Shown here: positions 8,260 to 45,203 of the stretch, one piece after another
How the letters are laid out: every line of letters begins with the position of its first letter
Numbering within the stretch: position 1 is the first letter of the stretch
Assembly (NCBI GenBank): GCA_900320325.1
Contig: ONRU01000017.1
Span: 1 to 47,064, forward strand
DNA from: an uncultured Lachnospiraceae bacterium
GTDB taxonomy: Bacteria; Bacillota; Clostridia; Lachnospirales; Lachnospiraceae
DNA: 47,064 bases
Reading direction: 5' to 3'
Made by a program: the position numbers and the translations under genes
The notes under the pieces: generated by a model
The model's input: the letters and a program-made list of their open reading frames with translations, nothing else
Database searches by the model: none
Told to the model about the DNA's origin: nothing

Positions 8260-9429
8260 ATGGAATATAAAAAGTTATCTGAAGTATGTGATGTAAGGGA
8301 TGGAACTCATGATTCCCCAAAGTACGTTACTGAGGGATTCCCGCTTGTTACATCAAAGAATATAGTAGATGGAAAACTTGATTTGTCTGTTGTGAGTTAT
8401 TTATCGCAGAATGATTATGACAAAATTAATGAAAGGTCAAACGTGGATACTGGAGACATCATAATGCCTATGATTGGCACAATCGGTAATCCATATTTGG
8501 TCGAGGATTTCTGTGAATTCGCAATTAAGAATGTAGCACTTATTAAGTTTCCAAATGATGATATTAGTAATAAATATATTTGGTACTATTTAAAAAGTCC
8601 AAGATTCAGTAGATATATCGAAGAAAAAAATAAGGGTGGAACTCAAAAATTCCTTGCGTTAGGTGATATAAGGAGCTTACTAGTTCCATATTTATCAATT
8701 TATATTCAAAACCAAATTGTTGAACGTTTGGACAAGTTGTTTTTAGTGATAAAGCATAGAGAACAAGAACTTGAACTGTTTGATGAACTCATCAAAGCCC
8801 GATTTGTCGAGATGTTTGGGGATATAAAAACAAATGAATATAATTGGCCCGTATGTAAATTTAAAGATGTTAGCATAAAGATTACTGATGGGGAACATGG
8901 TACAGTTCCGCGTGTTGATAAAAATGAAGGATATCTTTATTTTATGGCAAGAAACATTACAAAGGATGGTGATGTTGATCTGTCTGAAACATCTTTTGTT
9001 CCGGCTGAAGTTCATGAAAAGATATATAAAAGATGCAATCCGGAGAAAGAGGATCTACTTCTTGTGTGCGTAGGTGCAACAATTGGTAAATGTACGCTAG
9101 TACCAGAAACACTTGGAGAGTTTAGCATGGCCCGAAGTGTTGCATTAATAAAGCCCAACCGAGAAAAAGTGACAAGCGGATTCTTAATTAATTTACTACG
9201 AAGTGAAGCTATACAAAATGATATAGATCACTGCTCTCACGCAGCTGCGCAGGCAGGTTTATATACTAATATGATTAACAACTTAGATGCTTTTGTTCCG
9301 CCAATGGAATTGCAGATGGAATTTGATTCATTTTGTAAACAGGTCGACAAATCAAAAGTTGCCGTACAGAAAGCTCTGGACGAGGCACAAGTCCTGTTTG
9401 ACAGCCTGATGCAGCAGTATTTCGGGTGA
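8260..9429 (+). CDS. hsdS: Type I restriction-modification specificity subunit HsdS
   Basis: DNA-recognition subunit that sets the bipartite target of the methylase and nuclease. The 389-residue protein has two target-recognition domains (about 1-150 and 190-345), each followed by a conserved helical spacer: QNQIVERLDKLF...ELFDELIKARFVEMFGD in the centre and FDSFCKQVDKSKVAVQKALDEAQVLFDSLMQQYFG at the end. Most of the coding sequence is much richer in A/T than hsdM and hsdR, while the conserved spacers look like the neighbours. That pattern is expected where recognition domains are exchanged by recombination. The two TRDs differ from each other, so the recognition sequence should be asymmetric. 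The target cannot be predicted here. Confidence 0.93.
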   Translation: MEYKKLSEVCDVRDGTHDSPKYVTEGFPLVTSKNIVDGKLDLSVVSYLSQNDYDKINERSNVDTGDIIMPMIGTIGNPYLVEDFCEFAIKNVALIKFPNDDISNKYIWYYLKSPRFSRYIEEKNKGGTQKFLALGDIRSLLVPYLSIYIQNQIVERLDKLFLVIKHREQELELFDELIKARFVEMFGDIKTNEYNWPVCKFKDVSIKITDGEHGTVPRVDKNEGYLYFMARNITKDGDVDLSETSFVPAEVHEKIYKRCNPEKEDLLLVCVGATIGKCTLVPETLGEFSMARSVALIKPNREKVTSGFLINLLRSEAIQNDIDHCSHAAAQAGLYTNMINNLDAFVPPMELQMEFDSFCKQVDKSKVAVQKALDEAQVLFDSLMQQYFG

Positions 9430-9437
9430 GGTGAATC

Positions 9438-9776
9438 ATGGAAACATACCTTCCGTACATAGTTTCTGTTATCTGTGCAGCCATAGCTGGCTTTACAAGT
9501 TATACTGTTGCTAGAAAGCAGACAAAAGCAGATATTCAGAAACTTGAGAAGCAATATGAACTCGATATCGAAAAAGAACGTGAAAAGTTCGCAATGGAAA
9601 AAGAGAAAATGGAGATTGAGCATCGCCATCAACTGGAACTCCTGCAGAAAGAGTCCGAAAACAATCTTGGAGCGTCTGTGACCAATACCTTAATCACTGA
9701 GGCAATGAAAATGCCCGAGGTGAGACAGCAACTGTCTCAAGGAATGCGGAATGGAAACAAACGCAACAAACGGTAA
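9438..9776 (+). CDS. Small membrane-anchored coiled-coil protein in the hsd operon
   Basis: The 112-residue product is not recognised. One hydrophobic segment near the N-terminus (about residues 7-25, YIVSVICAAIAGFTSYTVA) is followed by a long charged heptad-like stretch (about 27-80, rich in K, E and Q) that predicts a coiled coil, and a basic tail ending NKRNKR. It starts eight bases after hsdS and ends 12 bases before hsdR, with a GAGGTGA ribosome binding site, so it is translated as part of the operon. A role in anchoring or regulating the restriction complex at the membrane is possible but is inference only. Confidence 0.75.
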   Translation: METYLPYIVSVICAAIAGFTSYTVARKQTKADIQKLEKQYELDIEKEREKFAMEKEKMEIEHRHQLELLQKESENNLGASVTNTLITEAMKMPEVRQQLSQGMRNGNKRNKR

Positions 9777-25754: not shown

Positions 25755-25960
25755 CATGGACCACGACCTCAGAGCTGGCGATCGATTGGACCACACCTCA
25801 GAGCTGGTGATCAAGGGCGGCAATCACGCATGGACCACGACCTCAGAGCTGGCGATCAAGGGCGGCAATCATGGACAGCACATGGTCTACGACCTCAGAG
25901 GTGATAATCAAGGGATGCTGGACCACGACCTTGGACCACGACCTCAGAGGTGACAATCAA
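25755..25960. repeat. Repeat cluster A, five copies of a GACCTCAGAG element
   Basis: The core (G)ACCTCAGAG(C/G)TG appears at 25765, 25795, 25839, 25891 and 25940, each preceded by GGACCAC or a variant and followed by GATCAAGGGCGGCAATCA-like sequence. A decayed sixth copy is near 25923. Spacings of roughly 30-50 bases are irregular. The cluster follows the exchanger terminator and contains no credible gene. It belongs to the family that recurs at 26423, 29035 and 31373 around the trp genes. Confidence 0.8.
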
Positions 25961-26097: not shown

Positions 26098-26401
26098 ATA
26101 CAATAAACCGATGAAGCGGAGATAAAGGCAATGATGCCGTTACAGAGAGCCTGTGATGCTGAGAGACGGGCACGAAACAAGTTGTCAAATGGACCGCGGA
26201 GGGCGCAGTCAAATGCGGTCTGATCCCAAAGGGAAGAGACCCGCAAAGTATTCTGCGACGCCGGAGGCAGGCGTAAACTGCCGGGGGTATGCAGGTACCC
26301 CGCTAAGCGCATGGGGTCATGCCCATGAATTCGAGGTGGCACCGCGGATATTTTATATTCGTCCTTGACAGAAGCAGCAGCTTTCTGCCAGGGATTTTTT
26401 T
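26098..26401 (+). promoter_or_regulatory. T-box leader, tryptophan-specific
   Basis: The T-box sequence AGGTGGCACCGCGG is at 26334-26347. Its bulge reads TGGC, which pairs with an acceptor end GCCA, as expected for bacterial tRNA-Trp with discriminator G. Stem I features AGAGAG (26141-26146 region) and a candidate specifier UGG at 26190-26192, followed by the purine A, agree. Stem III-like hairpins lie between about 26240 and 26320. A terminator with CCTTGACAGAA / TTCTGCCAGGG arms and seven T residues ends at 26401. Uncharged tRNA-Trp would favour the antiterminator and allow transcription of trpDCFBA. Confidence 0.9.
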
Positions 26402-26422
26402 ATGCTTAAAACCTGGCAGTCT

Positions 26423-26558
26423 GGCCAACGACCTCAGAGGTGATTGACGCCATGGTGGCCAACGACCTCAGAGGTGATTGACGCCATGGTGGCCAACGAC
26501 CCCAGAGGTGATCGACACCAGGCAGGCCAACGACCTCAGAGGTGATTGACACCAGGGG
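26423..26558 (+). repeat. Repeat cluster B, four tandem 34-bp units
   Basis: Units begin at 26423, 26457, 26491 and 26525. Each contains GGCCAACGACC, the dyad ACCTCAGAGGT (one unit has CCCCAGAGGT) and GATTGACGCCATGGT or a variant. The period is exactly 34 bases and there are no variable spacers, so this is a tandem repeat and not a CRISPR. It lies between the T-box terminator and the trpD ribosome binding site, thus inside the trp mRNA leader. Confidence 0.9.
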
Positions 26559-26596
26559 TGGCGGGCGGTCTGGCCGAATGAACGAAGGAGGAGAGT

Positions 26597-28423
26597 ATGA
26601 TCAAAGAAGCAATCGTCAAAATCGTAAGCAAGGAAGACCTGACCTATCAGGAAGCGTATGATGTCATGAATGAGATCATGAGCGGACAGACGACAGCGAC
26701 CCAGAATGCCGCGTTTCTGTCGGCCCTGTCGACCAAGAGCGCCAGAGCTGAGACAAAGGATGAGATCGCGGGCTGCGCGGCGGCCATGCGCGATCACGCC
26801 ACCCGGGTCGATCCCGGCATGGATGTATTTGAGATCGTAGGGACCGGCGGTGACAACGCCCACAGTTTTAATATTTCCACTACTTCCGCTCTGGTAGCGG
26901 CCGCGGGCGGCATGAAGGTGGCCAAGCACGGAAACAGGGCTGCTTCTTCCATGAGCGGGACCGCGGACTGTCTGGAGGCTCTGGGCGTCAATATCCATCA
27001 AAGCCCTGCCAAATGTGTGGAAATGCTGAAAAAGACAGGTATGTGCTTCTTCTTTGCCCAGAAATACCATACCTCCATGAAATATGTCGGATCCATCCGC
27101 AGGGAGCTGGGCTTCCGCACCGTCTTTAATATTCTCGGTCCCCTGACCAATCCGGCTTCTCCTTCCATGCAGCTGCTGGGCGTCTATGATGACTATCTGG
27201 TGGAGCCCCTGGCCCAGGTCCTGGTCAGTCTGGGTGTAAAAAGAGGCATGGTCGTATACGGTATGGACAAGCTGGATGAGATATCCATTGGCGCGCCCAC
27301 CAGAATCTGTGAGATCCGGGACGGATGGTTCAGGACCACCACGATCTGTCCTGAAGATTTTGGCTTTGAACGCTGCAGCAGGGAGGACCTTAAAGGCGGT
27401 ACACCTGAGGAGAACGCGGAGACCACCCGGGCCATCCTGCGCGGAGAAAAAGGGCATAAAAGAAACGCGGTCCTGATGAACGCGGGCGCTGCACTCTACA
27501 TCGGCGGCAAAGCGGACAGCCTGCAGGATGGTGTCCGGCTGGCAGCGCAGCTGATCGATTCCGGGAAAGCCATGGAGACACTGGAACAGGTGATCCGGGT
27601 CACTGGAACAGGTGATCCGGGTCAGCAACGAGCCGGAGGAGGAAGCATGACCATACTGGACCGGCTGGCGGAACATGCCGCGGAGCGAACGCGAACAGCC
27701 AAATCCCTGATTTCCGCGGAGGAGATGCGGAGGATGGCACTGGAGCTGCCTGCCGGAGACTTAGCTTTTGAAAATGCCCTGAAAAGTCCCGGTATGTCCT
27801 TTATCTGTGAATGCAAAAAAGCGTCTCCTTCCAAAGGTCTGATCGCGCCTGACTTTCCGTATCTGGACATTGCCCGTGCTTATGAGGAAGCGGGCGCAGA
27901 CTGCATCTCTGTCCTGACAGAACCGAAATGGTTCCTCGGCAGTGACCTCCGGGAAATCGCTGAGCAGGTCGCGATACCCTGTCTGCGTAAGGACTTTACG
28001 GTAGACGCCTATATGATCTATCAGGCAAAAGTGCTGGGAGCCTCCGCAGTGCTGCTGATCTGTTCCATCCTGGATATGGATCGGATCAGGGAATACATAG
28101 GAATCTGTGATGAACTGGGCATATCCGCTCTGGTGGAAGCCCATGATGAGCGGGAAATTGAGACAGCCCTTGCGGCAGGAGCCCGTATCATCGGTGTCAA
28201 TAACCGCAATCTGAAGGATTTTTCCGTAGATACAGGCAACAGCAGCAGGCTGCGCGGCATGATCCCGCCTGACGTGCTGTTCGTATCGGAGAGCGGTGTC
28301 CGGGGACCGGAGGATATCCGCAGCCTGCGGGCCTGTGGAACAGACGCGGTCCTGATCGGTGAGCTGCTGATGAAGGCAGAGGATAAAAAGAAAACGCTGG
28401 AAGAATTGAGAGGCACTTTATGA
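26597..28423 (+). CDS. trpDC: Fused anthranilate phosphoribosyltransferase / indole-3-glycerol-phosphate synthase
   Basis: Two tryptophan-pathway enzymes in one 608-residue frame. TrpD (about 1-343; [14 protein letters not shown] and HGNRAASS phosphoribosyl-site motifs) joins PRPP to anthranilate. TrpC (from Met351; [36 protein letters not shown]) forms indole-3-glycerol phosphate. The joint is formed by a 22-bp tandem duplication (27579-27622). Without it, TrpD would read [12 protein letters not shown] and stop at a TGA overlapping the trpC ATG (27647) as ATGA, the usual arrangement. The duplication shifts frame so that TrpD runs into trpC without a stop. The GGAGGAGG site before ATG 27647 remains, so free TrpC may also be made. 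AGGAGG precedes ATG 26597. trpE and trpG are not nearby. Confidence 0.93.
27579..27622 (+). repeat. 22-bp tandem duplication at the trpD/trpC junction
   Basis: Positions 27579-27600 and 27601-27622 are identical. As 22 is not a multiple of three, the extra copy shifts the trpD frame and deletes its stop, creating the TrpD-TrpC fusion. Confidence 0.95.
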
Positions 28424-29019: not shown

Positions 29020-29034
29020 CTTCGCGCATGAAGA

Positions 29035-29304
29035 GCTTCGGCGCGCAGGACATTCCTGTCCGGGCGGTGAGCGACCTCTGAGCTCGTGAACAGCAGCGGT
29101 GAGCGACCTCTGAGCTCGTGAACAGCTTCGGAGCGCAGGACATTCCTGTCCGGGCGGTGAGCGACCTCAGAGCTCGTGAACAGCAGCGGCGAGCGACCTC
29201 TGAGCTCGTGAACAGCTTCGGCGCGCAGGACATTCCTGTCTGGGCGGTGAGCGACCTCAGAGCTGGTGGACAGCAGCAGTGAGCGACCTCAGAGCTGGTG
29301 AACA
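29035..29304. repeat. Repeat cluster C, three 90-bp higher-order units
   Basis: Units start at 29035, 29125 and 29215. Each has GCTTCGGMGCGCAGG, a small hairpin GGACA-TTCC-TGTCC, GGGCGGTGAGC, then two GACCTCWGAGCT elements 32 bases apart (29073/29105, 29163/29195, 29253/29285) followed by GTGAACAGC. The core is the same as in clusters A and B. The array occupies nearly the whole trpF-trpB gap. Long open frames across it on both strands have a 30-residue period and no credible start, so they are taken as by-products. Confidence 0.9.
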
Positions 29305-29375
29305 GCAGGTGTGGCGATTAACGTAGGAACATCGGCGCAGATCAGATCTGTGCCGGCAGAAGGAGAAAGAAGAAC

Positions 29376-30566
29376 ATGACGAACCCAAACGGACGATTCG
29401 GGATCCACGGCGGCCAGTATATCCCTGAAACATTGATGAACGCCGTGATCGAGCTGGAAGAGGCCTATAACCATTATAAAAAAGACCCGGATTTCAACCG
29501 GGAGCTGACAGAGCTTTTCAATGAATACGCGGGAAGACCTTCCAGGCTCTACTATGCTGAAAAGATGACCCGGGATCTGGGCGGCGCCAGGATCTACCTG
29601 AAGCGGGAGGACCTCAATCATACAGGCGCCCATAAGATCAATAATGTGCTGGGGCAGGCCCTGCTGGCCTCCAAAATGGGCAAGACCCGCTTGATCGCTG
29701 AGACCGGCGCGGGACAGCATGGCGTGGCGACGGCCACGGCGGCGGCACTGATGGGAATGGAATGCGTGGTCTTCATGGGGGAGGAAGACACGATCCGCCA
29801 GGCCCTCAATGTTTATCGTATGCGGCTTCTGGGCGCGGAAGTGATTCCCGTAAAAACAGGGACTGCCACCCTCAAAGATGCCGTGTCGGAGGCCATGCGG
29901 GAGTGGACATCCCGGATCGCCGATACCCATTATTGTCTGGGATCGGTCATGGGCCCTCATCCTTTCCCTACCATTGTCAGGGACTTTCAGGCGGTAATTT
30001 CCAAAGAGGCCAGGCAGCAGATCCTGGAAAAAGAAGGAAGACTGCCCGACGCGGTCATAGCCTGCGTAGGCGGCGGTTCCAACGCCATCGGCAGTTTTTA
30101 CCATTTCATCGGCGATGAAGGAGTCCGGCTGATCGGCTGTGAAGCAGCCGGAAGAGGCATCGACACATTTGAGACAGCGGCTACCATCAATACCGGCCGG
30201 CTGGGCATTTTCCACGGAATGAAATCATATTTCTGTCAGGATGAATATGGACAGATCGCGCCGGTCTATTCCATTTCCGCGGGTCTGGATTATCCGGGTA
30301 TCGGTCCGGAGCACGCGTATCTGCATGATACGGGGCGGGCCGAATATGTGGCTGTTACAGATGAGGAGGCAGTGAATGCCTTTGAATATCTTGCCAGGAC
30401 AGAGGGAATTATACCGGCAATCGAGTCAGCCCACGCAGTGGCCCATGCCATGAAGATCGCGCCGGCCATGGATAAAGATCAGATTCTGATCATCACCATT
30501 TCCGGCAGAGGAGACAAAGACTGCGCTGCCATTGCCCGCTACAGGGGGGAGGATATCCATGAATAA
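29376..30566 (+). CDS. trpB: Tryptophan synthase beta chain
   Basis: PLP enzyme that joins indole to serine to make tryptophan. The 396 residues match TrpB1. PLP-binding Lys87 is in HTGAHKINN, catalytic Glu109 in AETGAGQHG, phosphate loop GGGSNAIG at about 233, and the C-terminal Ser-containing ISGRGDKD is present. AGGAGAAAG precedes ATG 29376. The 3' end overlaps the trpA start by eight bases. TrpB works with TrpA in an alpha2-beta2 complex with an indole tunnel. Confidence 0.97.
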
Positions 30567-31372: not shown

Positions 31373-31387
31373 GACCTCAGAGGTGGC
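31373..31387 (+). repeat. Single copy of the trp-locus repeat (D)
   Basis: GACCTCAGAGGTGGC, containing the dyad ACCTCAGAGGT, lies 44 bases after trpA and before the operon terminator. It is one isolated unit of the family. Confidence 0.75.
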
Positions 31388-33699: not shown

Positions 33700-36600
33700 T
33701 TACTCAGAAACGACTGTGATACCGTGGGCGTAAGCATACTCCGCGGCATAGGAATAATAGCTGCAATGGAAGATCAAAGGCAAGGCTGCCTTCGGATCTT
33801 CACTGAAAGCAGTATCGCTGATTTCCGTCACGGAATCGGGAATGGTCAGGTCGGTCAGGCCCGAAACGCCGGCAAAGGCACCGGATTCAATGGAAACCGT
33901 TCCCTCGGGAACAGCCGCTTCCGGCCCGGCACCGGAGGGACACTGCAGCAGGCTGCTGCCTTCCCGGTCCATCAGAAAGCCGTCTCTGGAAGAAAAGTCC
34001 TGGTTCGAGTCTGATACGGAAAAGCTCCGGAACAGAATGCCGGCAAATGCCGCGGGATCCAGATCTGTCATGGCGCTGCCGATCTGCAGGGTATCGCAGG
34101 ACAGGATATTGTGGCCGCCCGAGGAATCCGGCCGCCTGACGGTAGGGTCGAAGGCGCCGGCGCCGACTGCCGTCAGGCCGTCGGGCAGAACCGGTACGGA
34201 CGCGAGCGGGTTGCCGGCAAAAGCGTGGCTGCCGACAGACCGGAGAGAATCCGGCAGGGCAAGCTCTGTCAGGGAGCAGCAGCGGAAGGCGTCTTCCCCT
34301 ATGGTCTGCAGTCCGCCGTTCCATGTGATCTGGCACAGGGCAGCGGTATTTTCAAAAGCGCCCCGGCCGATGGTTTCCAGTGTGGAAGGCAGGACCAGGC
34401 TCAGATCGTCATAATATCTGTCAAAATCAGCAAAAGCATAGTCAGCGATCCGGACTGTTCCTTCCGGAATTGTATAGGTATACAGAGGCAGTGCCTCATG
34501 ATCGGAAGGGACATGCGTTGAATCCGGTGACTGACCGGAAGCCGGCAGCAATGACTGGCCGGTCGTATCATAGGCGGCCGGGAACAGCCAGAGGGTCTTT
34601 CCGTCAGCGCTGAAGAGCACGCCTGAAACAGTCTTAAAGGCTGTGTTATCGGCACTGATGGAATAAGCATTGACGGAGCTGCAGCCGTAGAAAGCATACG
34701 CTTCCAGTGTCTGCAGGGAAGCGGGCAGCTGGACAGATTCCAGGCTGATGCAGTCTTCAAAGGCATGGGCGTGAATCGTTGTTACGCTGTCAGGAATGAC
34801 CAGCTGGCGGAGCATGCCCGGAACGCTCATTTCAGGGGCCAGCGCGTCGGGACTGCTCTGATCCGGCAGGGTATACGTATCCGCGTCGAAAACATAGTGG
34901 ATACAGCTGCTTTCACCGTCTCCGATCTCAGTGACAGGTATGGATTCCACTTCCGCGGGGATGGTCAGGGCACTGTCCTGTCCCTCATAAGAAAGCAGGA
35001 TTGCGTGGTCCGCTGAAACCATAAAATGCAGGGAACCGTAACTGGTCTCCACATCGACCGGTGTAGGTTCTGTAAAGACCACCGCCGGAACCGTGTCCGC
35101 CTGCCCGGCCTGTTCCGAAGAAGTCTGATCATCAGAAGCGCCGTCCTGTGAAACACCGGTCTTGGCAGACGCAGAATCTGTGCTGTTCCGGTCATCCTCC
35201 GTTTTATCTCCGGCAGCGTCCCCGGAGGTATCAGCAGTTTTCGAGGTATCAGCAGTTACTGAGGTATCAGCAGTTTTCGAGGTGTCAGCAGTTACTGAGG
35301 TATCAGCAGTTACTGAGGTATCAGCAGTTTCCGAAGTGTCTGCCGCGGCGGGATCCTCCTCCCTGTCAGAGGAAGAGGGCAGAATAACTGCCTCTGAGGC
35401 GTGGGAATTGCCGGACAGATCCGTGAGGATCAGCTGGACCAGGAACTGCCCTTCAAACGACGAGACGGGTTCTCTGGACAATGCCAGGCCGTTCCGCAAT
35501 CCCAGGCTTTCCTGTCCCTGATGGGGAGAGGAGGACCAGGTATACCAGGGGCTGGCACTGTCCGCAGGTCTTGTATAAGCAGTACTTTGGGCATCTGCAA
35601 TGGCGGTATAGCCTGCAGCGTCCGCTGTATTTCTGCCAATGGGGAAAGGGGATTCCATCTTCCGGCTGACCGTTTTCACCGTAAACGAAGCACCATTCCT
35701 TTCCGTAATCAGAGCTGCCTCTGTTCCGCTGTCAGCTCCGTCCTCTGTCAGGAGCAGATCCGGGGCTTTATAGGTCACATAGCTGCCGCGGATGACCGTC
35801 TCCCTGAAATACCAGGGATCCTCCATCTGTCCGTAAGGATTGGAAGCCCGGACCAGCAGAGGATCTGCCGGAACAGACATGGTATCATCACGGGAGAGAG
35901 GAATCCGGACATCGGTCAGGACAGGCCGGAAAGTACCCGGCCCGGTCTTCTGCAGGATGCTGTAGGAAGCGTCTGCCAGAGCCGAAGCCTGGTCCGGGGT
36001 CAGAGAGAGTTCCAGGACCGGGGTATAGCCGTCTTCACTGCTGATGGCTTCTTCCAAAGAAGGCAGATTCCAGTCGGTTCCGTCCCCGCCGGAAGCCTCT
36101 TCCATGAAGAGCTGTATCATACTCAGGTAAGCCTCGCCGGGCGCGAAACTGCTGTAGGAGACGGTCTCGCAGGCATCATAAAGACTGCGGTTCCAACCGG
36201 GGAAATATACAGACAGGCCTCTGGTACCCGACATGTTGGCGGTCCTGGCCAGAAGGATGCCTTCGCAGGCCTGATACAGGAGATCCGCCTGGTCCGGATA
36301 CAGATCGCTGAAGGCGGAGGCCAGGTCGGCGATATCGGCCAGATCACAGCCTGTTTCCCGGCTTTCGGCCTGGCTGACGCCGAAGAACCTGGCCCGGTCC
36401 CGGCATGCGCGGATATCGCTGTAACGGCCGTTCCGCAGATCTTCCATGACCGGCTGTACAAGCGTATCCAGGGCGTTGGTCACCCGGTCCAGCCGGTCCA
36501 GATCGACCGCGGACAGCGTCAGGTCCGGATGGTGCAGGGCGGATATGTTCTCATCATAATAAGCCCTGCAGCTGCCCACAGCGCTGTCGGCAAAGGCCGC

Positions 36601-37518
36601 CGCAGAGGGAGCAGTATTCAGAATGTCCAGGAAACGGTAATTCCAGCCGCAGGAGGCTTCCACTTCTTCAGAAGCGATCATGCAGGAGGCATAATTGCGC
36701 CACAAAACGGCATTCTCCACAGAAGCCATCATGTCGGCGTCAAAGCCGACCCAGTCCAGGCGGGCATGGCTTTTGAAAACCGTATGATCCATGGCTTCCC
36801 GCATCTCCGAAAGCAGAAGGCCGTCGCCTCCGTTCAGTTCATCCGAGCCAAAGCCCCAGACAGGGCCGCCTCCGGTCCCCCAGAACAGCAGGCCGTAATG
36901 GCGGGCGGGAAAGCGTTCGGTGCAGTAATTGACAAAGGCGGCCAGTGTCCCCGCGTCCCCCATATTGGCGGGGCCGGCTGTTTCGGCAATGATCCGGTCA
37001 TCGGGATCTCTGGACAGGTCCAGGATACAATCCCGGTCAGCGGGTATACCGGACTGCCAGGCGCTGCTGCCGCCGGTCATGAGTACCACATTGGAGGTGT
37101 TAAAATCAATGCCTGCCTCCTCCATTTCCCGGATATCCTCCGAAGCCGCGCCCGCTCCGCTTTCCAGACCGGAACCATTCATGTAGATCATCACGGTATA
37201 ATTCTTTTCGGCAGTTCCGCTGCTGTCAGCAGAACGGCCTTCAGAGTCTGTGATCTCCACTTCCGTATAGCTCTTTCCGTCCCGGCTTTCCAGGAGCCCG
37301 GGATCAGAGGAATCCGGTGTCCTGTCTTCCGGCTCTTCCGCGGATTCCGGTGGCGCTTCTTCGACAGCCGGAGCGGATGAGGCGGCCGCGGCGGCTTCGG
37401 AAGCGCCCGTAGAAGCCGCGGCCGGATTACCGGTCTTCCCGGCGCAGCCGGCAGCCAGCAGAGCAGCCAGCAGAATCGCCGCGACGGAATGAAGTTTTGT
37501 TTTATTTCGTTTCATCAT
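33700..37518 (-). CDS. Clostripain-like (C11) pseudoprotease lipoprotein with BspA-type LRRs
   Basis: Paralogue of the protein at 18704, 1272 residues. It has a clear lipoprotein signal (basic start, hydrophobic core, LLAAGC lipobox), then an Ala/Ser-rich linker, a C11 domain (YTVMIYMNGSGLESGAG to about residue 480), a beta-rich region, a Thr/Ser/Asp repeat tract, and LRR_5 repeats at the C-terminus. At the positions of the catalytic residues the sequence reads FWGTGGGPVWG (Thr215 for His) and GFDADMMA (Asp262 for Cys), while surrounding residues are strongly conserved. It therefore should lack protease activity but keep the fold. ATG 37518 has CAGGA nine bases upstream. Possible roles are binding, inhibition or scaffolding at the cell surface. 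Confidence 0.9.
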   Translation of the reverse strand: MMKRNKTKLHSVAAILLAALLAAGCAGKTGNPAAASTGASEAAAAASSAPAVEEAPPESAEEPEDRTPDSSDPGLLESRDGKSYTEVEITDSEGRSADSSGTAEKNYTVMIYMNGSGLESGAGAASEDIREMEEAGIDFNTSNVVLMTGGSSAWQSGIPADRDCILDLSRDPDDRIIAETAGPANMGDAGTLAAFVNYCTERFPARHYGLLFWGTGGGPVWGFGSDELNGGDGLLLSEMREAMDHTVFKSHARLDWVGFDADMMASVENAVLWRNYASCMIASEEVEASCGWNYRFLDILNTAPSAAAFADSAVGSCRAYYDENISALHHPDLTLSAVDLDRLDRVTNALDTLVQPVMEDLRNGRYSDIRACRDRARFFGVSQAESRETGCDLADIADLASAFSDLYPDQADLLYQACEGILLARTANMSGTRGLSVYFPGWNRSLYDACETVSYSSFAPGEAYLSMIQLFMEEASGGDGTDWNLPSLEEAISSEDGYTPVLELSLTPDQASALADASYSILQKTGPGTFRPVLTDVRIPLSRDDTMSVPADPLLVRASNPYGQMEDPWYFRETVIRGSYVTYKAPDLLLTEDGADSGTEAALITERNGASFTVKTVSRKMESPFPIGRNTADAAGYTAIADAQSTAYTRPADSASPWYTWSSSPHQGQESLGLRNGLALSREPVSSFEGQFLVQLILTDLSGNSHASEAVILPSSSDREEDPAAADTSETADTSVTADTSVTADTSKTADTSVTADTSKTADTSGDAAGDKTEDDRNSTDSASAKTGVSQDGASDDQTSSEQAGQADTVPAVVFTEPTPVDVETSYGSLHFMVSADHAILLSYEGQDSALTIPAEVESIPVTEIGDGESSCIHYVFDADTYTLPDQSSPDALAPEMSVPGMLRQLVIPDSVTTIHAHAFEDCISLESVQLPASLQTLEAYAFYGCSSVNAYSISADNTAFKTVSGVLFSADGKTLWLFPAAYDTTGQSLLPASGQSPDSTHVPSDHEALPLYTYTIPEGTVRIADYAFADFDRYYDDLSLVLPSTLETIGRGAFENTAALCQITWNGGLQTIGEDAFRCCSLTELALPDSLRSVGSHAFAGNPLASVPVLPDGLTAVGAGAFDPTVRRPDSSGGHNILSCDTLQIGSAMTDLDPAAFAGILFRSFSVSDSNQDFSSRDGFLMDREGSSLLQCPSGAGPEAAVPEGTVSIESGAFAGVSGLTDLTIPDSVTEISDTAFSEDPKAALPLIFHCSYYSYAAEYAYAHGITVVSE
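35225..35350 (-). repeat. 18-bp repeats encoding a Thr/Ala/Asp/Ser tract
   Basis: Six close copies and one diverged copy of an 18-bp unit (GAGGTATCAGCAGTT plus three variable bases on the plus strand) start at 35225, 35243, 35261, 35279, 35297, 35315 and 35333. On the coding strand they give ETADTS/VTADTS/KTADTS hexapeptides. The tract links the beta-rich region and the LRR domain. Copy number is likely to vary by slippage. Confidence 0.92.
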
Positions 37519-37520
37519 AT

Positions 37521-37578
37521 GATATTGTCCTGCCCCAATATTCTTTTCCGATATTGTCCTGTTCCAATATTTTCTTTC
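37521..37578. promoter_or_regulatory. Two tandem dyads upstream of the C11 pseudoprotease
   Basis: A 29-bp segment is repeated with a few changes (37521-37549 and 37550-37578). Each copy holds the inverted repeat ATATTG-N8-CAATAT (37522-37541 and 37551-37570). They lie just upstream of the minus-strand start and its ribosome binding site, and may be operator sites or mRNA hairpins. Confidence 0.6.
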
Positions 37579-37930
37579 TGTTTTCAATCTGAATGCTTTA
37601 CAGACATTTTCAGCCGGCTGGAAACAGCATCCGCCCGCAGTCCGAAATCCGGACCGCAGGGCATAATTATATCTATTGTAACATTGAACTTCTCCATTGT
37701 CATTTACCCTGTCGGGAACCTGCAGAACCCTGGCGGATCGTAAAATGACGGCAGAAATCAGACAAGCTGTCAAATAACGGCAGAAACCCGGACAGGAAAA
37801 AGAAATCAGAGGTCAGACTTCTCCTGTTATTGTAGATTGTATACAGAACTTTGCGCCTTATTTTGTCGGTTGTGACAGAATATTTCAGAAGCTGTATTAA
37901 TTTTGTACAAATCGTGTCGGGGTGTTTCTG
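37579..37930. other. Intergenic region between divergent pseudoprotease and atp genes
   Basis: No gene recognised. A minus-strand TATAAT (complement of 37666-37671) may be the -10 box of the pseudoprotease gene, but no good -35 was found. A 5-bp hairpin GTCCG/CGGAC lies near 37640. Confidence 0.35.
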
Positions 37931-37959
37931 TTGCATTTGATTTATCTTTAATTTAGAAT
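37931..37959 (+). promoter_or_regulatory. Promoter of the atp operon
   Basis: TTGCAT (37931-37936) and TAGAAT (37954-37959) with a 17-base spacer, about 75 bases before atpI. Confidence 0.55.
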
Positions 37960-38034
37960 AACAGTAGTGCTTTATTTTCTATATGAATAGATGTCCGCTT
38001 TCGGGACAATTGTTTAAGACAAAGGAGAATATGA

Positions 38035-38460
38035 ATGCACGTTCAGGATGCGATCAAAAAGGAAACTGCCAGGATTGGAATGGCTACAGTCATAGGGACC
38101 GTTATCATGTGCGCGGTTTTTTTCGGACTGCACAGTGCCTTTCCCGAGGCGGTTCCTTTTGATTATACAGTGATATTGGGCGGGGCCGCCGGGTGCGCTG
38201 TCGCTGTCGCTAATTTCTTTTTCATGGGACTGACCGTCCAGGCCGTAACGGACGCGGGCGGGACCCAGGATCAGGCGGACAGGGACAGGGCTTTCAATAC
38301 TCTGAAGGCAAGCTACCGGAACCGGACGCTGGCCCAGCTTCTGTGGATCATCATTGCCATAGTGGCGCCCTGCTTTAATCCTGTTTCAGGGATCATTCCG
38401 CTGTTTCTGCCGGGGATCCTGATCAAGGTCCTGCATTTGACGGGAATCATTAAAGTCTGA
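38035..38460 (+). CDS. atpI: AtpI-like ATP synthase assembly/accessory protein
   Basis: The 141-residue membrane protein has four hydrophobic segments (about 15-34, 44-68, 98-115, 118-136) with a charged loop between the second and third (DQADRDRAFNTLKASYRNRTLAQ). That layout and its place directly before atpB fit the poorly conserved AtpI family, linked to c-ring assembly and cation handling. ATG 38035 has AAAGGAG at a spacing of eight; the ATG four bases earlier is in another frame. It is the first gene of the atp operon. Confidence 0.78.
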   Translation: MHVQDAIKKETARIGMATVIGTVIMCAVFFGLHSAFPEAVPFDYTVILGGAAGCAVAVANFFFMGLTVQAVTDAGGTQDQADRDRAFNTLKASYRNRTLAQLLWIIIAIVAPCFNPVSGIIPLFLPGILIKVLHLTGIIKV

Positions 38461-38539
38461 GGACGGATCGGATCATACTGGTCCCGAAGAACTCGGAACG
38501 GAACTGTTGGAATAAGGAGGAAAGGAGAAAAGAGAGTAT

Positions 38540-39307
38540 ATGGATGTTGATATTACTGGCGCGAAGATACTGGCAGAGATTAATGTTCCATTCCTGAGCA
38601 AATATCTCGGGGTCTGGCAGCTGACGGAAACACTTGTAGTCAGCTGGATCGTAATGGCCATCATTACGATCACCTGTATCATACTGACCAGGAATCTCAA
38701 GGTCGAAAACGTCTCAAAACGGCAGGCTGTCGCGGAATGGCTGGTCGAGCTGGTCACCAATCTGGTCCGCGATAACACCGGCGGCACCAAAATGGACTGG
38801 CTGATCCCGCTGGTGGCTGCTCTGTTTTCAACAAGTGTCATATCCAACCTGATCAGTCTGCTGGGCTTCCGGAGCCCGACGGCTGACCTGATGACAGAAC
38901 TGGCCTGGGCCATCATCGTTTTCATTCTGATCACCGCCAACAAGATCAAATCAATGGGTATCCTCGGATATCTGAAGGACTTCACGACGCCGATTTTCCT
39001 GATGACCCCTTTCAATATACTGGGAGAGGTCTTCACGCCCATCAGTATGGCCTGCCGTCATTTCGGCAACATTCTGTCAGGTGTCGTCATCAACGCCCTG
39101 ATCTACGCGGCCCTGGCAGTGGCTTCTTCAGCCCTGTTCGGACTGATTCCGGGCGCTGTCGGCAAAGTGCTTGCCAGTATCCCGATCCTGGATGTCGGTA
39201 TTCCGGCAATCGCCGGTGTCTATTTTGACTGGTTCTCAGGCGTCATGCAGGCATTTATCTTTACCATGCTGACGATCATGTTCATTTCCCAGGCGGCGGA
39301 AAGCTGA
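38540..39307 (+). CDS. atpB: ATP synthase F0 subunit a
   Basis: Membrane stator subunit that forms the ion half-channels with the c-ring. The 255-residue protein has five to six hydrophobic helices. The essential Arg is Arg173 in SMACRHFGNI, where many bacteria have SLRLFGN, and the PTADLMTELAWA segment is the usual aMotif. AAGGAGG and AAAGGAG lie before the ATG. It is in the standard F0 order before atpE. Confidence 0.95.
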   Translation: MDVDITGAKILAEINVPFLSKYLGVWQLTETLVVSWIVMAIITITCIILTRNLKVENVSKRQAVAEWLVELVTNLVRDNTGGTKMDWLIPLVAALFSTSVISNLISLLGFRSPTADLMTELAWAIIVFILITANKIKSMGILGYLKDFTTPIFLMTPFNILGEVFTPISMACRHFGNILSGVVINALIYAALAVASSALFGLIPGAVGKVLASIPILDVGIPAIAGVYFDWFSGVMQAFIFTMLTIMFISQAAES

Positions 39308-39356
39308 CGCTGCGGAACAGGTCAAAGAAGGTCCCCGCGGGGGCCGGATACAATGA

Positions 39357-39740
<384 letters not shown>

Positions 39741-39777
39741 ACGCCGTACAGTTCATCAGAACAGGAGGGACAATAAA

Positions 39778-40278
39778 GTGACACAGGGATTAGTAGCCAT
39801 TAATTCATGGACATTTCTGGCACAGATGCTCAACCTGTTGATCCAGATCGTACTGATCCGTAAATTCCTGCTCAAGCCCATCAAGGAGGTCATCGCCAAG
39901 CGCAAGGCCATTTCTGATGAGGAACTTGCAGTTGCCAGAAAATCCCGCGCTGAGGCGGAGGCTATGAAGGCGGAATATGAAAGCAGTATCGCCAATGCCA
40001 AAGCCGAGGCCAATGAGATTATCCAGACAGCCCAGAAGGCAGCGGATACCCGGGGCGAAGAGATCGTCGCCGCGGCGGAGAAGCATGCCGCTTCCATTAA
40101 GGCCAAGGCTGAGACGGATATTGAACAGGAACGCAAGAAGGCAGTGAATGAGCTCAAGAACGAGATCGGCGGCATTGCCGTGGATCTGGCCGGCAAGGTC
40201 ATTGAGCGTGAAATCAGCGAAAAGGACCATCAGGCTCTGATCAATGAATTTATTGAGAATGTAGGTGAGGCGTCATGA
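39778..40278 (+). CDS. atpF: ATP synthase F0 subunit b
   Basis: Peripheral stalk subunit of 166 residues. One N-terminal membrane helix (WTFLAQMLNLLIQIVLIRKFL) is followed by a long charged, Ala-rich right-handed coiled coil. The start is GTG 39778 with GGAGGG upstream. It overlaps atpH by four bases (ATGA), so the two are coupled. Confidence 0.95.
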   Translation: MTQGLVAINSWTFLAQMLNLLIQIVLIRKFLLKPIKEVIAKRKAISDEELAVARKSRAEAEAMKAEYESSIANAKAEANEIIQTAQKAADTRGEEIVAAAEKHAASIKAKAETDIEQERKKAVNELKNEIGGIAVDLAGKVIEREISEKDHQALINEFIENVGEAS

Positions 40279-40814
40279 CAAAAACTGCCGAACTTTACGG
40301 CGGAAGCCTGTATGATCTCGCGGTCGAAGAGAACTGCTCCTCTGAAATGATGGGGGAGCTGGCGCAGATCCGCGACATTTTCCGGGAGAATCCGGAATAT
40401 ATAGGCCTGCTTTCCGAGCCGGCCATTGCCAAGGCGGAACGGCTTTCTCTGATCGATCAGGCTTTTGGGACACAGGCCATGCCCTATATCGTAAATTTCC
40501 TCAAGATCCTCTGCGAAGAGGGAATGATGCGGGAATTCTTCGGATGCTGCGAAGCGTTCCGGGAACGATATAATAAAGATCATAATATTGCGGAAGCAGT
40601 CGTGACGGCTGCCGTACCGCTCACCGCTGCCCAGGCAAAGGCCCTGGAGGCCAGGCTGGAACAGATCAGCGGTAAGAACATCCTTTTAATACAGAAGACG
40701 GATCCCGCCGTGATCGGCGGCATGAAGGTGGAACTGGAAGGCCGTCAGTACGACGCCACCATATCCGGCCGCCTGTCAGGCGTACGCAGAAGGATGACAG
40801 AGGTCGTATTATAA
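40275..40814 (+). CDS. atpH: ATP synthase F1 subunit delta
   Basis: Joins the peripheral stalk to the F1 head. The 179-residue protein has the helical N-terminal domain (LYGGSLYDLAVEEN..., NFLKILCEEGMM) and the C-terminal segment VIGGMKVELEGRQYDATISGRLSGVRR typical of the family. Its start overlaps the atpF stop. Confidence 0.94.
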   Translation: MTKTAELYGGSLYDLAVEENCSSEMMGELAQIRDIFRENPEYIGLLSEPAIAKAERLSLIDQAFGTQAMPYIVNFLKILCEEGMMREFFGCCEAFRERYNKDHNIAEAVVTAAVPLTAAQAKALEARLEQISGKNILLIQKTDPAVIGGMKVELEGRQYDATISGRLSGVRRRMTEVVL

Positions 40815-40885
40815 GGGCCTCCTTTACCTGGAGATCAGGCTGCCCCGGGCAGCCTTCAGAAGCATAAAAAAGGACGGATGTAAAA

Positions 40886-42406
40886 ATGCAATTAAAACCT
40901 GAACAAATATCCAAGGTCATCCGGAGCCAGATCAAATACTATCAGAATACGATCGAACAGACAGAAACAGGCACAGTCCTGACTGTCGGTGACGGTATTG
41001 CCAGAGCCAGCGGCCTGACAGGCTGTATGGCCGGCGAGCTGCTGGAGTTTGAGGACGGCACCTTCGGAATGGCACAGAACCTGGAAGAAAACAGTGTTTC
41101 CATCGTGCTTTTCGGTACTGACCAGGGGATCAGTGAAGGACAGACCATCAAGCGCACAGGCAGAGTCGTATCTGTGCCTGTAGGCGAGGCCATGATCGGC
41201 CGTGTTGTCAACGCGATCGGCCAGCCCATTGATGGCGACGGTCCTGTCAGTACGACAGAGTTCAGGCCTGTAGAGACCATAGCGCCCGGCATCATTGCCC
41301 GCCAGCCCGTTAAAGAGCCTCTGCAGACCGGTATCAAGGCCATCGACTCCATGATCCCGATCGGACGCGGACAGCGTGAGCTGATCATCGGCGACCGTCA
41401 GACCGGTAAGACCACCATCGCGATCGATACGATCCTGAACCAGAGAGATAAGGATGTTATCTGTATTTACGTAGCCATCGGCCAGAAGCGTTCCACAGTG
41501 GCCAACCTGGTTGCCCAGCTGCAGGAAGGCGGCGCCATGGACTATACCATCGTTGTAGCGGCGACAGCTTCCGAGCCCAGCCCGCTGCAGTTCATCGCTC
41601 CCTATTCCGGCTGCGCGATGGGCGAATACTTTATGAACAAAGGCAAACACGTCCTGATCATCTATGATGATCTGTCTAAGCACGCGGTCGCTTACAGGGC
41701 CCTGTCCCTGCTGATCCGCCGTCCGCCGGGACGTGAAGCCTATCCCGGTGACGTTTTCTACCTGCACTCACGTCTGCTGGAAAGAGCGGCCAAGCTTTCC
41801 GATGAGAACGGCGGAGGTTCGCTGACAGCCCTTCCCATCATCGAGACCCAGGCAGGCGACGTCTCCGCATATATCCCGACCAACGTCATTTCCATTACCG
41901 ACGGACAGATCTTCCTGGAGACCGAGCTGTTCCACTCCGGCATCATGCCGGCGGTCAACCCCGGTATTTCCGTCTCCCGAGTCGGCGGTAATGCCCAGAT
42001 CAAGGCCATGAAGAAGGTCGCCGGTACCCTGAAACTGGTCTATGCCCAGTACAGAGAGCTGGCCAGCTTCGCCCAGTTCGGATCCGATCTGGACGCGGAT
42101 ACCAAGGCCCGTCTTGCCCAGGGTGAAAGAATCGTGGAAGTCCTCAAGCAGAACCGGAGCACCCCGATCCCTGTAGAGAAGCAGGTCGCGATCCTTTACG
42201 CGGTCATCAATGACTATCTGGGCAGGATCGAAGTTACCGACATTCATGACTTTGAAGAAGGATTCTATCAGTTCCTGGATACCAACGCCGCAGGCCTGGC
42301 CGCCATGCAGACCATCCGCTCCACCGGAGCCATGGACCAGAAGGCGGAACAGAACCTGAAGGAAGCTCTGGAAGAATATCTGGAGATTTTCCAGAAGACC
42401 AGATAA
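40886..42406 (+). CDS. atpA: ATP synthase F1 subunit alpha
   Basis: Non-catalytic nucleotide-binding subunit of F1, 506 residues as usual. P-loop GDRQTGKT at about residue 170, followed by the family sequence [26 protein letters not shown] and the signature [14 protein letters not shown]. The N-terminal beta-barrel is complete ([10 protein letters not shown]). Confidence 0.97.
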
Positions 42407-42485
42407 AAGCATTGTTAGATATCCCGATCCGGACCGGGATCCCCCGCGGATACCGGATCTGACAGGGATATGAGGAGGAAAACGC

Positions 42486-43349
42486 ATGGCTTCTAATATG
42501 AAAGCTGTAAAGCTCCGTATGAAGAGCATCGAAAGCACCATGCAGATCACCAGGGCAATGCAGCTGGTCGCGGCTTCCAAGCTGCGCAGGGCCAAGGAAC
42601 GGGCCGACAATACCCGGCCTACGTTCAAGATGCTCCGCGATACACTGCTGGATATCTCCCTGACCAATACCGAATTCACCTCCGTATATTCAACAGCCTC
42701 TGAGAACAAGAAATGGCTCTATGTAGTCATTGCCGGCGACAGGGGAATGGCAGGCGGATACAACTCCAACCTGTTCAAGAAGATGATGGAGCTGACAGAG
42801 GGCAAGGAATATGATGTCCTGCCCCTTGGTAAAAAGGCAGTGGAATTCTACAGACGCAGAAAGGTCAATATGATCACGGACGCTTTCGCGGAGGTGGCGA
42901 ATGTCAATATCGGCGACTGCTTCAGTATCGCCAATATTATCTGTGACGCCTATAAGAACGGAGAATATGGTCATATCGCTCTGTGCTACACGGGATTCAT
43001 TTCCATGCTGACACAGAGACCCAGTCAGTCATCGCTCCTGCCCCTTTCCGACTTCAAGGCGGAAGCCGAGGACGCGGAAAGAGTAAAGGCAAAGGGCCTG
43101 ATCCTGTATGAGCCTGACAGTGAAACAGTATTCGATGCGATCGTACCCCAGTATCTGGCGGCTCTGATCAGCGGTGCAATGTTTGAGTCTGTCGCCAGCG
43201 AACTGGCGGCCAGAAGAACAGCCATGGACGCGGCGACCAAGAACGCGGGCGAAATGCTCGACAAACTGGGTCTGTACTACAACCGTGCCCGTCAGGCAAG
43301 CATTACACAGGAGATCACGGAGATTGTGGCCGGTGCTGAGGGAACCTGA
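42486..43349 (+). CDS. atpG: ATP synthase F1 subunit gamma
   Basis: Central rotor shaft, 287 residues. The N-terminal helix has MKSIESTMQITRAMQLVAASKLRRA and the C-terminal helix has ARRTAMDAATKNAGEML..YNRARQASITQEITEIVAGAE, both forming the coiled coil that turns inside the alpha/beta ring. The Rossmann-like middle part begins VIAGDRGMAGGYN. GAGGAGG lies just before ATG 42486. Confidence 0.96.
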   Translation: MASNMKAVKLRMKSIESTMQITRAMQLVAASKLRRAKERADNTRPTFKMLRDTLLDISLTNTEFTSVYSTASENKKWLYVVIAGDRGMAGGYNSNLFKKMMELTEGKEYDVLPLGKKAVEFYRRRKVNMITDAFAEVANVNIGDCFSIANIICDAYKNGEYGHIALCYTGFISMLTQRPSQSSLLPLSDFKAEAEDAERVKAKGLILYEPDSETVFDAIVPQYLAALISGAMFESVASELAARRTAMDAATKNAGEMLDKLGLYYNRARQASITQEITEIVAGAEGT

Positions 43350-43355
43350 GCATAA

Positions 43356-44774
<1,419 letters not shown>

Positions 44775-44792
44775 AGGAAGGAGGGTACAGCT

Positions 44793-45203
44793 ATGGCAGC
44801 AGCCTTCCATCTGCATATCGCAGATCTTGACGGAATTGTCTATGACGGACAGGCCCAGATGATTTCCTGCCGTACGATCGACGGTGAAGTTGCCATCCTG
44901 GCAAAACACATCAATTATATTTCCGCCATTTCCGTCGGCAGGGCAGCAGTCATCATGGAGGACGGCAGCAGACGTGAGGCGGCCTGCGTAGGCGGCATGC
45001 TTACCATGGTCGACAATTACTGCAGAATGATCTGCAATACCTGGGAATGGACCGAAGAGATCGACGTAGAACGCGCTAAAGAAGCTCTGAAAAGAGCGGA
45101 GAAGAGGCTGGCGGATCCGGCTTCCAGTGAGAAGACCAAGCATGCAGCCCGGCAGAAGAAAAAAAGAGCGGAGCTGCGGCTTCAGCTTACAGGAAACAAA
45201 TGA
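44793..45203 (+). CDS. atpC: ATP synthase F1 subunit epsilon
   Basis: Rotor subunit and intrinsic regulator, 136 residues. An N-terminal beta-sandwich (FHLHIADLDGIVYDGQAQMISCRTIDGEVAILAKH) and two C-terminal helices (EEIDVERAKEALKRAEKRL, HAARQKKKRAELRLQL) match the family. AAGGAGG lies before ATG 44793. It is the last atp gene. Confidence 0.93.
   Translation: MAAAFHLHIADLDGIVYDGQAQMISCRTIDGEVAILAKHINYISAISVGRAAVIMEDGSRREAACVGGMLTMVDNYCRMICNTWEWTEEIDVERAKEALKRAEKRLADPASSEKTKHAARQKKKRAELRLQLTGNK

What the first reader, a model, noticed from the sequence alone, without database searches (positions are those of the whole stretch)
27579..27650. trpD-trpC fusion created by a 22-bp tandem duplication
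Removing one copy restores TrpD ending [10 protein letters not shown] with a TGA overlapping the trpC ATG. With both copies the frame runs through [16 protein letters not shown] into Met1 of TrpC. A gene fusion by simple duplication is caught here at single-base resolution, and TrpC retains its own ribosome binding site.
Basis: seen in the sequence. Interest (0 to 1): 0.75.

Follow-up and report, generated by a model that had tools for sequence, protein, structure and literature searches.

The report
TrpD-TrpC fusion by short duplication
In one gut-type bacterium a 22-letter stretch of DNA, copied in tandem, has joined two neighbouring tryptophan-making genes into one long gene, while a close relative still has them separate; it is a neat but modest example of how gene fusions are born, not yet checked in the original sequencing reads.

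Summary
Window 27579-27624 is a perfect 22-bp tandem duplication, and ORF 26597-28423 runs from TrpD into TrpC through a 15-residue linker. A sister genome about 90% identical (RUG13495; L111 = G080) has one copy, a TrpD ending RVSNAPEEEA, and a stop overlapping the trpC start as ATGA. The separate form is therefore most likely ancestral. Of 122 distinct trpD-trpC junctions compared, only the window's is fused. Among rows listed for 299 genomes of the phylum, no other row spanning both domains is free of stops. Most likely this is a real, recent slippage event at an ATGA junction, where any insertion of 3n+1 bp can fuse the genes. Both domains match their families well and TrpC keeps its ribosome-binding site. 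Activity is untested. This TrpC also lacks two residues that the other 121 have, so decay of trpC is a live rival. Reads could not be checked and the genome is a 179-contig draft, so an assembly or minority-allele explanation is not excluded. New variant of a known kind (trp gene fusion); modest interest.

The parts
27579..27600 (+). first 22-bp unit of the tandem duplication (end of trpD)
27601..27622 (+). second, identical 22-bp unit; a further CA (27623-27624) completes the 46-bp array
   Evidence: absent from the sister
26597..28423 (+). fused trpD-trpC ORF, 608 aa
26597..27601 (+). TrpD part, residues 1-335, up to the last residue shared with the single-copy form
   Evidence: TIGR01245 at residues 8-334, 406 bits, cut-off 199
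27602..27646 (+). linker, residues 336-350, [15 protein letters not shown]
27635..27642 (+). GGAGGAGG, retained Shine-Dalgarno-like site of trpC
   Evidence: sequence
27647..28423 (+). TrpC part from its original ATG (Met351)
   Evidence: NF001377 at residues 351-605, 311 bits, cut-off 260
27947..27948 (+). place where 6 bp (two residues after GSD in TrpC) present in the sister are missing
   Evidence: 121 of 122 junction loci have the two residues
28420..29019 (+). trpF; its ATG overlaps the stop of the fused gene as ATGA
   Evidence: best NCBIfam hits are phosphoribosylanthranilate isomerase, each below its cut-off
29376..30566 (+). trpB
   Evidence: TIGR00263, 647 bits
30559..31329 (+). trpA
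   Evidence: TIGR00262, 289 bits
26102..26369 (+). T-box leader upstream of trpD; probable specifier TGG at 26190-26192 (specifier reading is mine)
   Evidence: RF00230, 80.2 bits, E 1.1e-17, below the gathering score of 93; not listed at gathering threshold; position of TGG

Best explanation
A recent 22-bp tandem duplication, so far seen only in this genome, fused trpD to trpC. The ancestor had a trpD whose TGA overlapped the trpC ATG (ATGA). There the downstream gene lies one base out of frame, so an insertion of 3n+1 bp before the stop removes termination and runs into Met1 of the next protein, provided no new stop appears; 22 = 3x7+1. The unit starts with CA and is followed by CA, as replication slippage at a short match would leave. 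The change lies after the part of TrpD that aligns to solved structures and before Met1 of TrpC, so it swaps the TrpD tail for a 15-residue glycine-rich linker. Shown: sequence, frame, single-copy state of the sister, domain matches, retained ribosome-binding site. Inferred: slippage as mechanism, activity of both domains in the 608-aa protein, some free TrpC from the internal ATG, and that the change is close to neutral rather than adaptive.
For: Exact 22-bp repeat. Sister with one copy and ATGA. 1 of 122 distinct junctions fused, the window's own. 16 of 16 other listed rows spanning both domains in the 299-genome phylum sample hold a stop, as do 6 of 6 in the 61-genome relatives search. Ten further places, eight chosen for a long open frame at TrpD, are unfused. 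TrpD chains among the 60 solved structures shown align only to query residues 329-337 at their ends. dN/dS to the sister 0.035 (trpD) and 0.095 (trpC). Across 13 genes, 16,002 coding bases, no other frame-changing difference from the sister was found.
Against: One genome only; no reads. TrpC also lacks two residues present in the other 121 junction loci. The VSN-type ending of TrpD, common in relatives, is lost. dN/dS reflects mostly the time before the duplication. The sister's copy of the gene at 33700-37773 has one in-frame stop in the alignment, so at least one of the two assemblies is not free of lesions there.
Confidence: 0.62

Rival explanations
1. Assembly artefact or minority allele: the true or majority sequence has one copy and the draft assembly kept an erroneous or rare two-copy path.
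For: Draft of 179 contigs, 84.7% complete; only one genome has it; the relatives and sister have the separate form.
Against: A 46-bp array is shorter than usual short reads, and assemblers more often collapse than expand repeats (general knowledge). 12 of the 13 genes compared with the sister keep one collinear frame; the fused gene is the exception.
Confidence: 0.18
2. trpC is decaying in this lineage, and the fusion is one of its lesions: the fused protein keeps TrpD but has little TrpC activity.
For: Private 2-residue deletion after GSD in TrpC, absent from the other 121 junction loci. trpE not found and trpG only below cut-off in this genome.
Against: No window-specific change at the 73 most conserved TrpC columns (it counts substitutions, not the deletion). 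trpC dN/dS 0.095. trpB and trpA are well conserved. The missing trpEG may be an assembly gap: in the sister they lie on another contig, and the best-matching contig of this genome starts about 2.6 kb past trpG.
Confidence: 0.14
3. Reversible switch: slippage between 1, 2 and 3 copies moves the locus between coupled separate genes, a fusion, and uncoupled separate genes.
For: Frame arithmetic: 1 copy, 343-aa TrpD; 2 copies, 608-aa fusion; 3 copies, 346-aa TrpD whose stop ends 31 bases before the trpC ATG. Other tandem arrays lie around these genes and differ between this genome and the sister.
Against: One genome, no variation seen; a two-copy 22-bp repeat is not a usual phase-variation tract; the other arrays are intergenic.
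Confidence: 0.04

Closest known systems
Other trp gene fusions (TrpC-TrpF, TrpE-TrpG, TrpG-TrpD, TrpF-TrpB)
   Same: Two neighbouring pathway enzymes in one polypeptide. E-G and C-F are named in PMC2395257 (passages), TrpGD, TrpF-TrpB and TrpF-TrpC in PMC11237513 (passages). TrpC-TrpF fusions also occur in four genomes of this genus.
   Different: The pair and order TrpD then TrpC were not among fusions I saw there, nor in the papers listed for (listings only, apart from those two papers). Here the causal mutation is visible.
hisD-hisC fusion of Salmonella made by frameshift mutations (Yourno, Kohno and Roth, 1970; recalled, not found)
   Same: Adjacent operon genes fused by a change of frame near the junction, giving a bifunctional enzyme.
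   Different: That one was selected in the laboratory; this one is natural, made by a 22-bp duplication, and untested for activity.
Translational coupling at stop-start overlaps (E. coli trpE-trpD; PMC12548453, passages)
   Same: The ancestral ATGA junction of trpD and trpC is of this kind.
   Different: The duplication abolishes the termination step; free TrpC could arise only by initiation at the internal site.

Membership tests
trp gene fusion (bifunctional enzyme) | two trp enzyme domains in one uninterrupted frame | tested here: met
trp gene fusion (bifunctional enzyme) | separate genes in relatives, so that fusion is the derived state | tested here: met
   sister; 121 of 122 junctions unfused
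trp gene fusion (bifunctional enzyme) | single polypeptide made in the cell | not testable with these tools
   needs proteomics or a blot
trp gene fusion (bifunctional enzyme) | both activities present | not testable with these tools
   needs complementation or assay
trp gene fusion (bifunctional enzyme) | kept over evolutionary time in more than one species | tested here: not met
   only this genome
T-box leader (RF00230) before trpD | score at or above Rfam's gathering score | tested here: not met
   80.2 against 93 bits, full-length match, E 1.1e-17

The most novel reading that the evidence does not exclude
A new natural bifunctional enzyme, TrpD-TrpC, born in one mutational step at an ATGA overlap, with both the fused protein and free TrpC made from one mRNA (read-through plus internal initiation), caught before selection has shaped it.
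Probability: 0.3. Interest if true: 0.55.

Novelty: new variant of a known kind. Interest (0 to 1): 0.38.

Why it matters
Gene fusions are usually seen long after the event. Here the separate and fused states differ at the junction by one 22-bp unit between genomes about 90% identical. If real, it shows that overlapping stop-start junctions are one indel away from fusion, and gives a ready test of whether a raw, unselected fusion of two pathway enzymes works at once.

Tried and rejected
Rejected: that relatives share the fusion. Rows with a long open frame at TrpD looked like possible fusions: the one in G029 ends its TrpD at a stop before TrpC; of ten places in the phylum sample (eight picked because the listed open frame was about 630 aa or more without a stop, and G313 and G243, which had a stop), none is fused; TrpD ends 5-15 residues after its match in 10 of 10 (two regions held no TrpC). 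Not accepted as shown: loss of trpEG, since an assembly gap explains it too. A first alignment for folding (A1) misaligned the TrpC-only rows and was not used. Searches for TrpD-TrpC fusions in print showed none, in listings and a few passages of open-licence papers only. The two-copy mRNA folds with a 14-bp hairpin upstream of the trpC start (z -2.76; 3 of 200 shuffles as good; sister z -1.00); I draw nothing firm from it.

Full report
Observation. The window holds a perfect tandem duplication at 27579-27624: two 22-bp units and 2 further bases, at the end of trpD. ORF 26597-28423 is open for 608 aa and contains TrpD (residues 8-334, TIGR01245, 406 bits) and TrpC (351-605, NF001377, 311 bits). 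Residues 336-350 are [15 protein letters not shown] and Met351 is the TrpC start. The same DNA with one copy gives a 343-aa TrpD ending [10 protein letters not shown]. No perfect tandem match of 20 or more bases arose in 20 Markov copies of the window; units of 20 bp or more occur twice in 704,690 bp of 80 related loci, both in L086, and twice in the window, here and in the array before trpD.

Direction of change. The nearest genome found is RUG13495 (uncultured Lachnospiraceae; L111, the same place as G080). It is 90% identical over the gene pair; the next is 74%. The alignment opens a 22-bp gap at the second unit, and the sister reads CGGGTCAGCAACGCGCCGGAGGAGGAAGCATGA, a TrpD ending RVSNAPEEEA with its TGA overlapping the trpC ATG. 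I compared junctions in all 151 loci then held: four had no usable pair (L011, L022, L030, L143) and the other 147 collapsed to 122 distinct junctions, in which one genome may still appear twice if its copies differ. One is fused, the window itself; 121 are not, and five of these have the ATGA-type overlap (overlaps also). The 80 loci were ranked by a search that favours both genes in one frame, so frame counts are biased; a fused gene would have been favoured too. In 299 genomes drawn from the phylum, 193 matched; 16 other listed rows span both domains in one frame and each has a stop inside, while the window has none; the list was cut at its low end. Ten further places from that sample, eight of them chosen for a long open frame at TrpD, are unfused. 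In the 61-genome relatives search six other full-length rows all hold a stop. Apart from the sister, no genome close enough to show the unit letter by letter was found.

Mechanism. In an ATGA overlap the downstream gene lies one base out of frame. An insertion of 3n+1 bases before the TGA therefore removes the stop and enters Met1 of the next gene, if no new stop appears. 22 is 3 x 7 + 1. The unit starts with CA and is followed by CA, which fits slippage in replication (inference). The TrpD chains among the 60 solved structures shown align up to query residues 329-337, so the change lies at or beyond the end of the part shared with solved TrpD, although the VSN-type ending common in relatives is lost. 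GGAGGAGG stays 4 bases before the ATG. Free TrpC could thus still be made, but no longer by termination and restart (inference; coupling at the E. coli trpE-trpD overlap is described in PMC12548453, passages).

Is it functional? For: dN/dS against the sister is 0.035 (trpD), 0.095 (trpC), 0.173 (trpF), 0.012 (trpB), 0.024 (trpA); TrpC shows no window-specific substitution at its 73 most conserved columns, TrpD one at 150, S232G; residues I recall as catalytic in TrpC are present in the alignment. These values describe mostly the time before the duplication. Most TrpC differences from the sister could not be polarised (16 of 20). Against: this TrpC lacks two residues after GSD that the other 121 junction loci have. 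trpE was not found in this genome and trpG only below cut-off, but the sister's trpEG lie on a separate contig, and the contig of this genome that matches nearest begins about 2.6 kb past them, so an assembly gap explains it as well. trpE was found in 27 of 62 genomes of the genus, many of them incomplete.

Assembly error? Reads are not available. The genome is a draft of 179 contigs, 84.7% complete. Over 13 genes (16,002 coding bases) compared with the sister contig, the 22-bp unit is the only frame-changing difference I found; paired single-base gaps in the gene at 33700-37773 cancel out, and the sister's copy of that gene has one in-frame stop in the alignment. This speaks for a sound contig but does not prove the repeat.

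Setting. The cluster is trpD-C-F-B-A, behind a T-box leader (26102-26369, 80.2 bits, below the gathering score of 93) with a probable TGG specifier; the sister has a similar leader before its separate trpEG. Tandem arrays lie before trpD and between trpF and trpB.

Verdict. A real-looking, recent, one-step fusion of two tryptophan genes, well polarised by one sister genome. The kind (trp gene fusion) is known; this pair and its freshness are the new parts. Interest stays modest until reads and activity are checked.

Noticed in passing
27947-27948 (inside trpC): TrpC lacks two residues after GSD that the other 121 distinct junction loci have: a 6-bp deletion relative to the sister.
   Followed up: partly
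25787-25951, 26422-26562, 29029-29308, 31373-31384: Intergenic arrays and single copies with a palindrome-like core (ACCTCAGAGGT and variants) before, within and after the trp genes; the exact core occurs 6 times in the window against 0.01 expected. GACCTCWGAGGT also occurs on contigs C11, C45, C92, C95 and C96 of the same genome.
   Followed up: partly
26102-26369; L165 about 9388-9662: A T-box leader before trpD resembles the leader before the sister's separate trpEG (71% over 275 bases), suggesting shared control of a split trp pathway.
   Followed up: partly
L147 (G026), L149 (G023), L116 (G065), L128 (G078): Four genomes of the same genus have TrpC fused in frame to TrpF with linkers of different length and sequence; in G026 the open frame also includes TrpB.
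   Followed up: partly
37814-45033: This stretch is 98.0% identical to the sister, while the trp region is about 90% and nearby stretches 83-92%; recent exchange is one reading.
   Followed up: no
27591-27624: The duplication creates a 14-bp RNA hairpin just upstream of the trpC ribosome-binding site.
   Followed up: no
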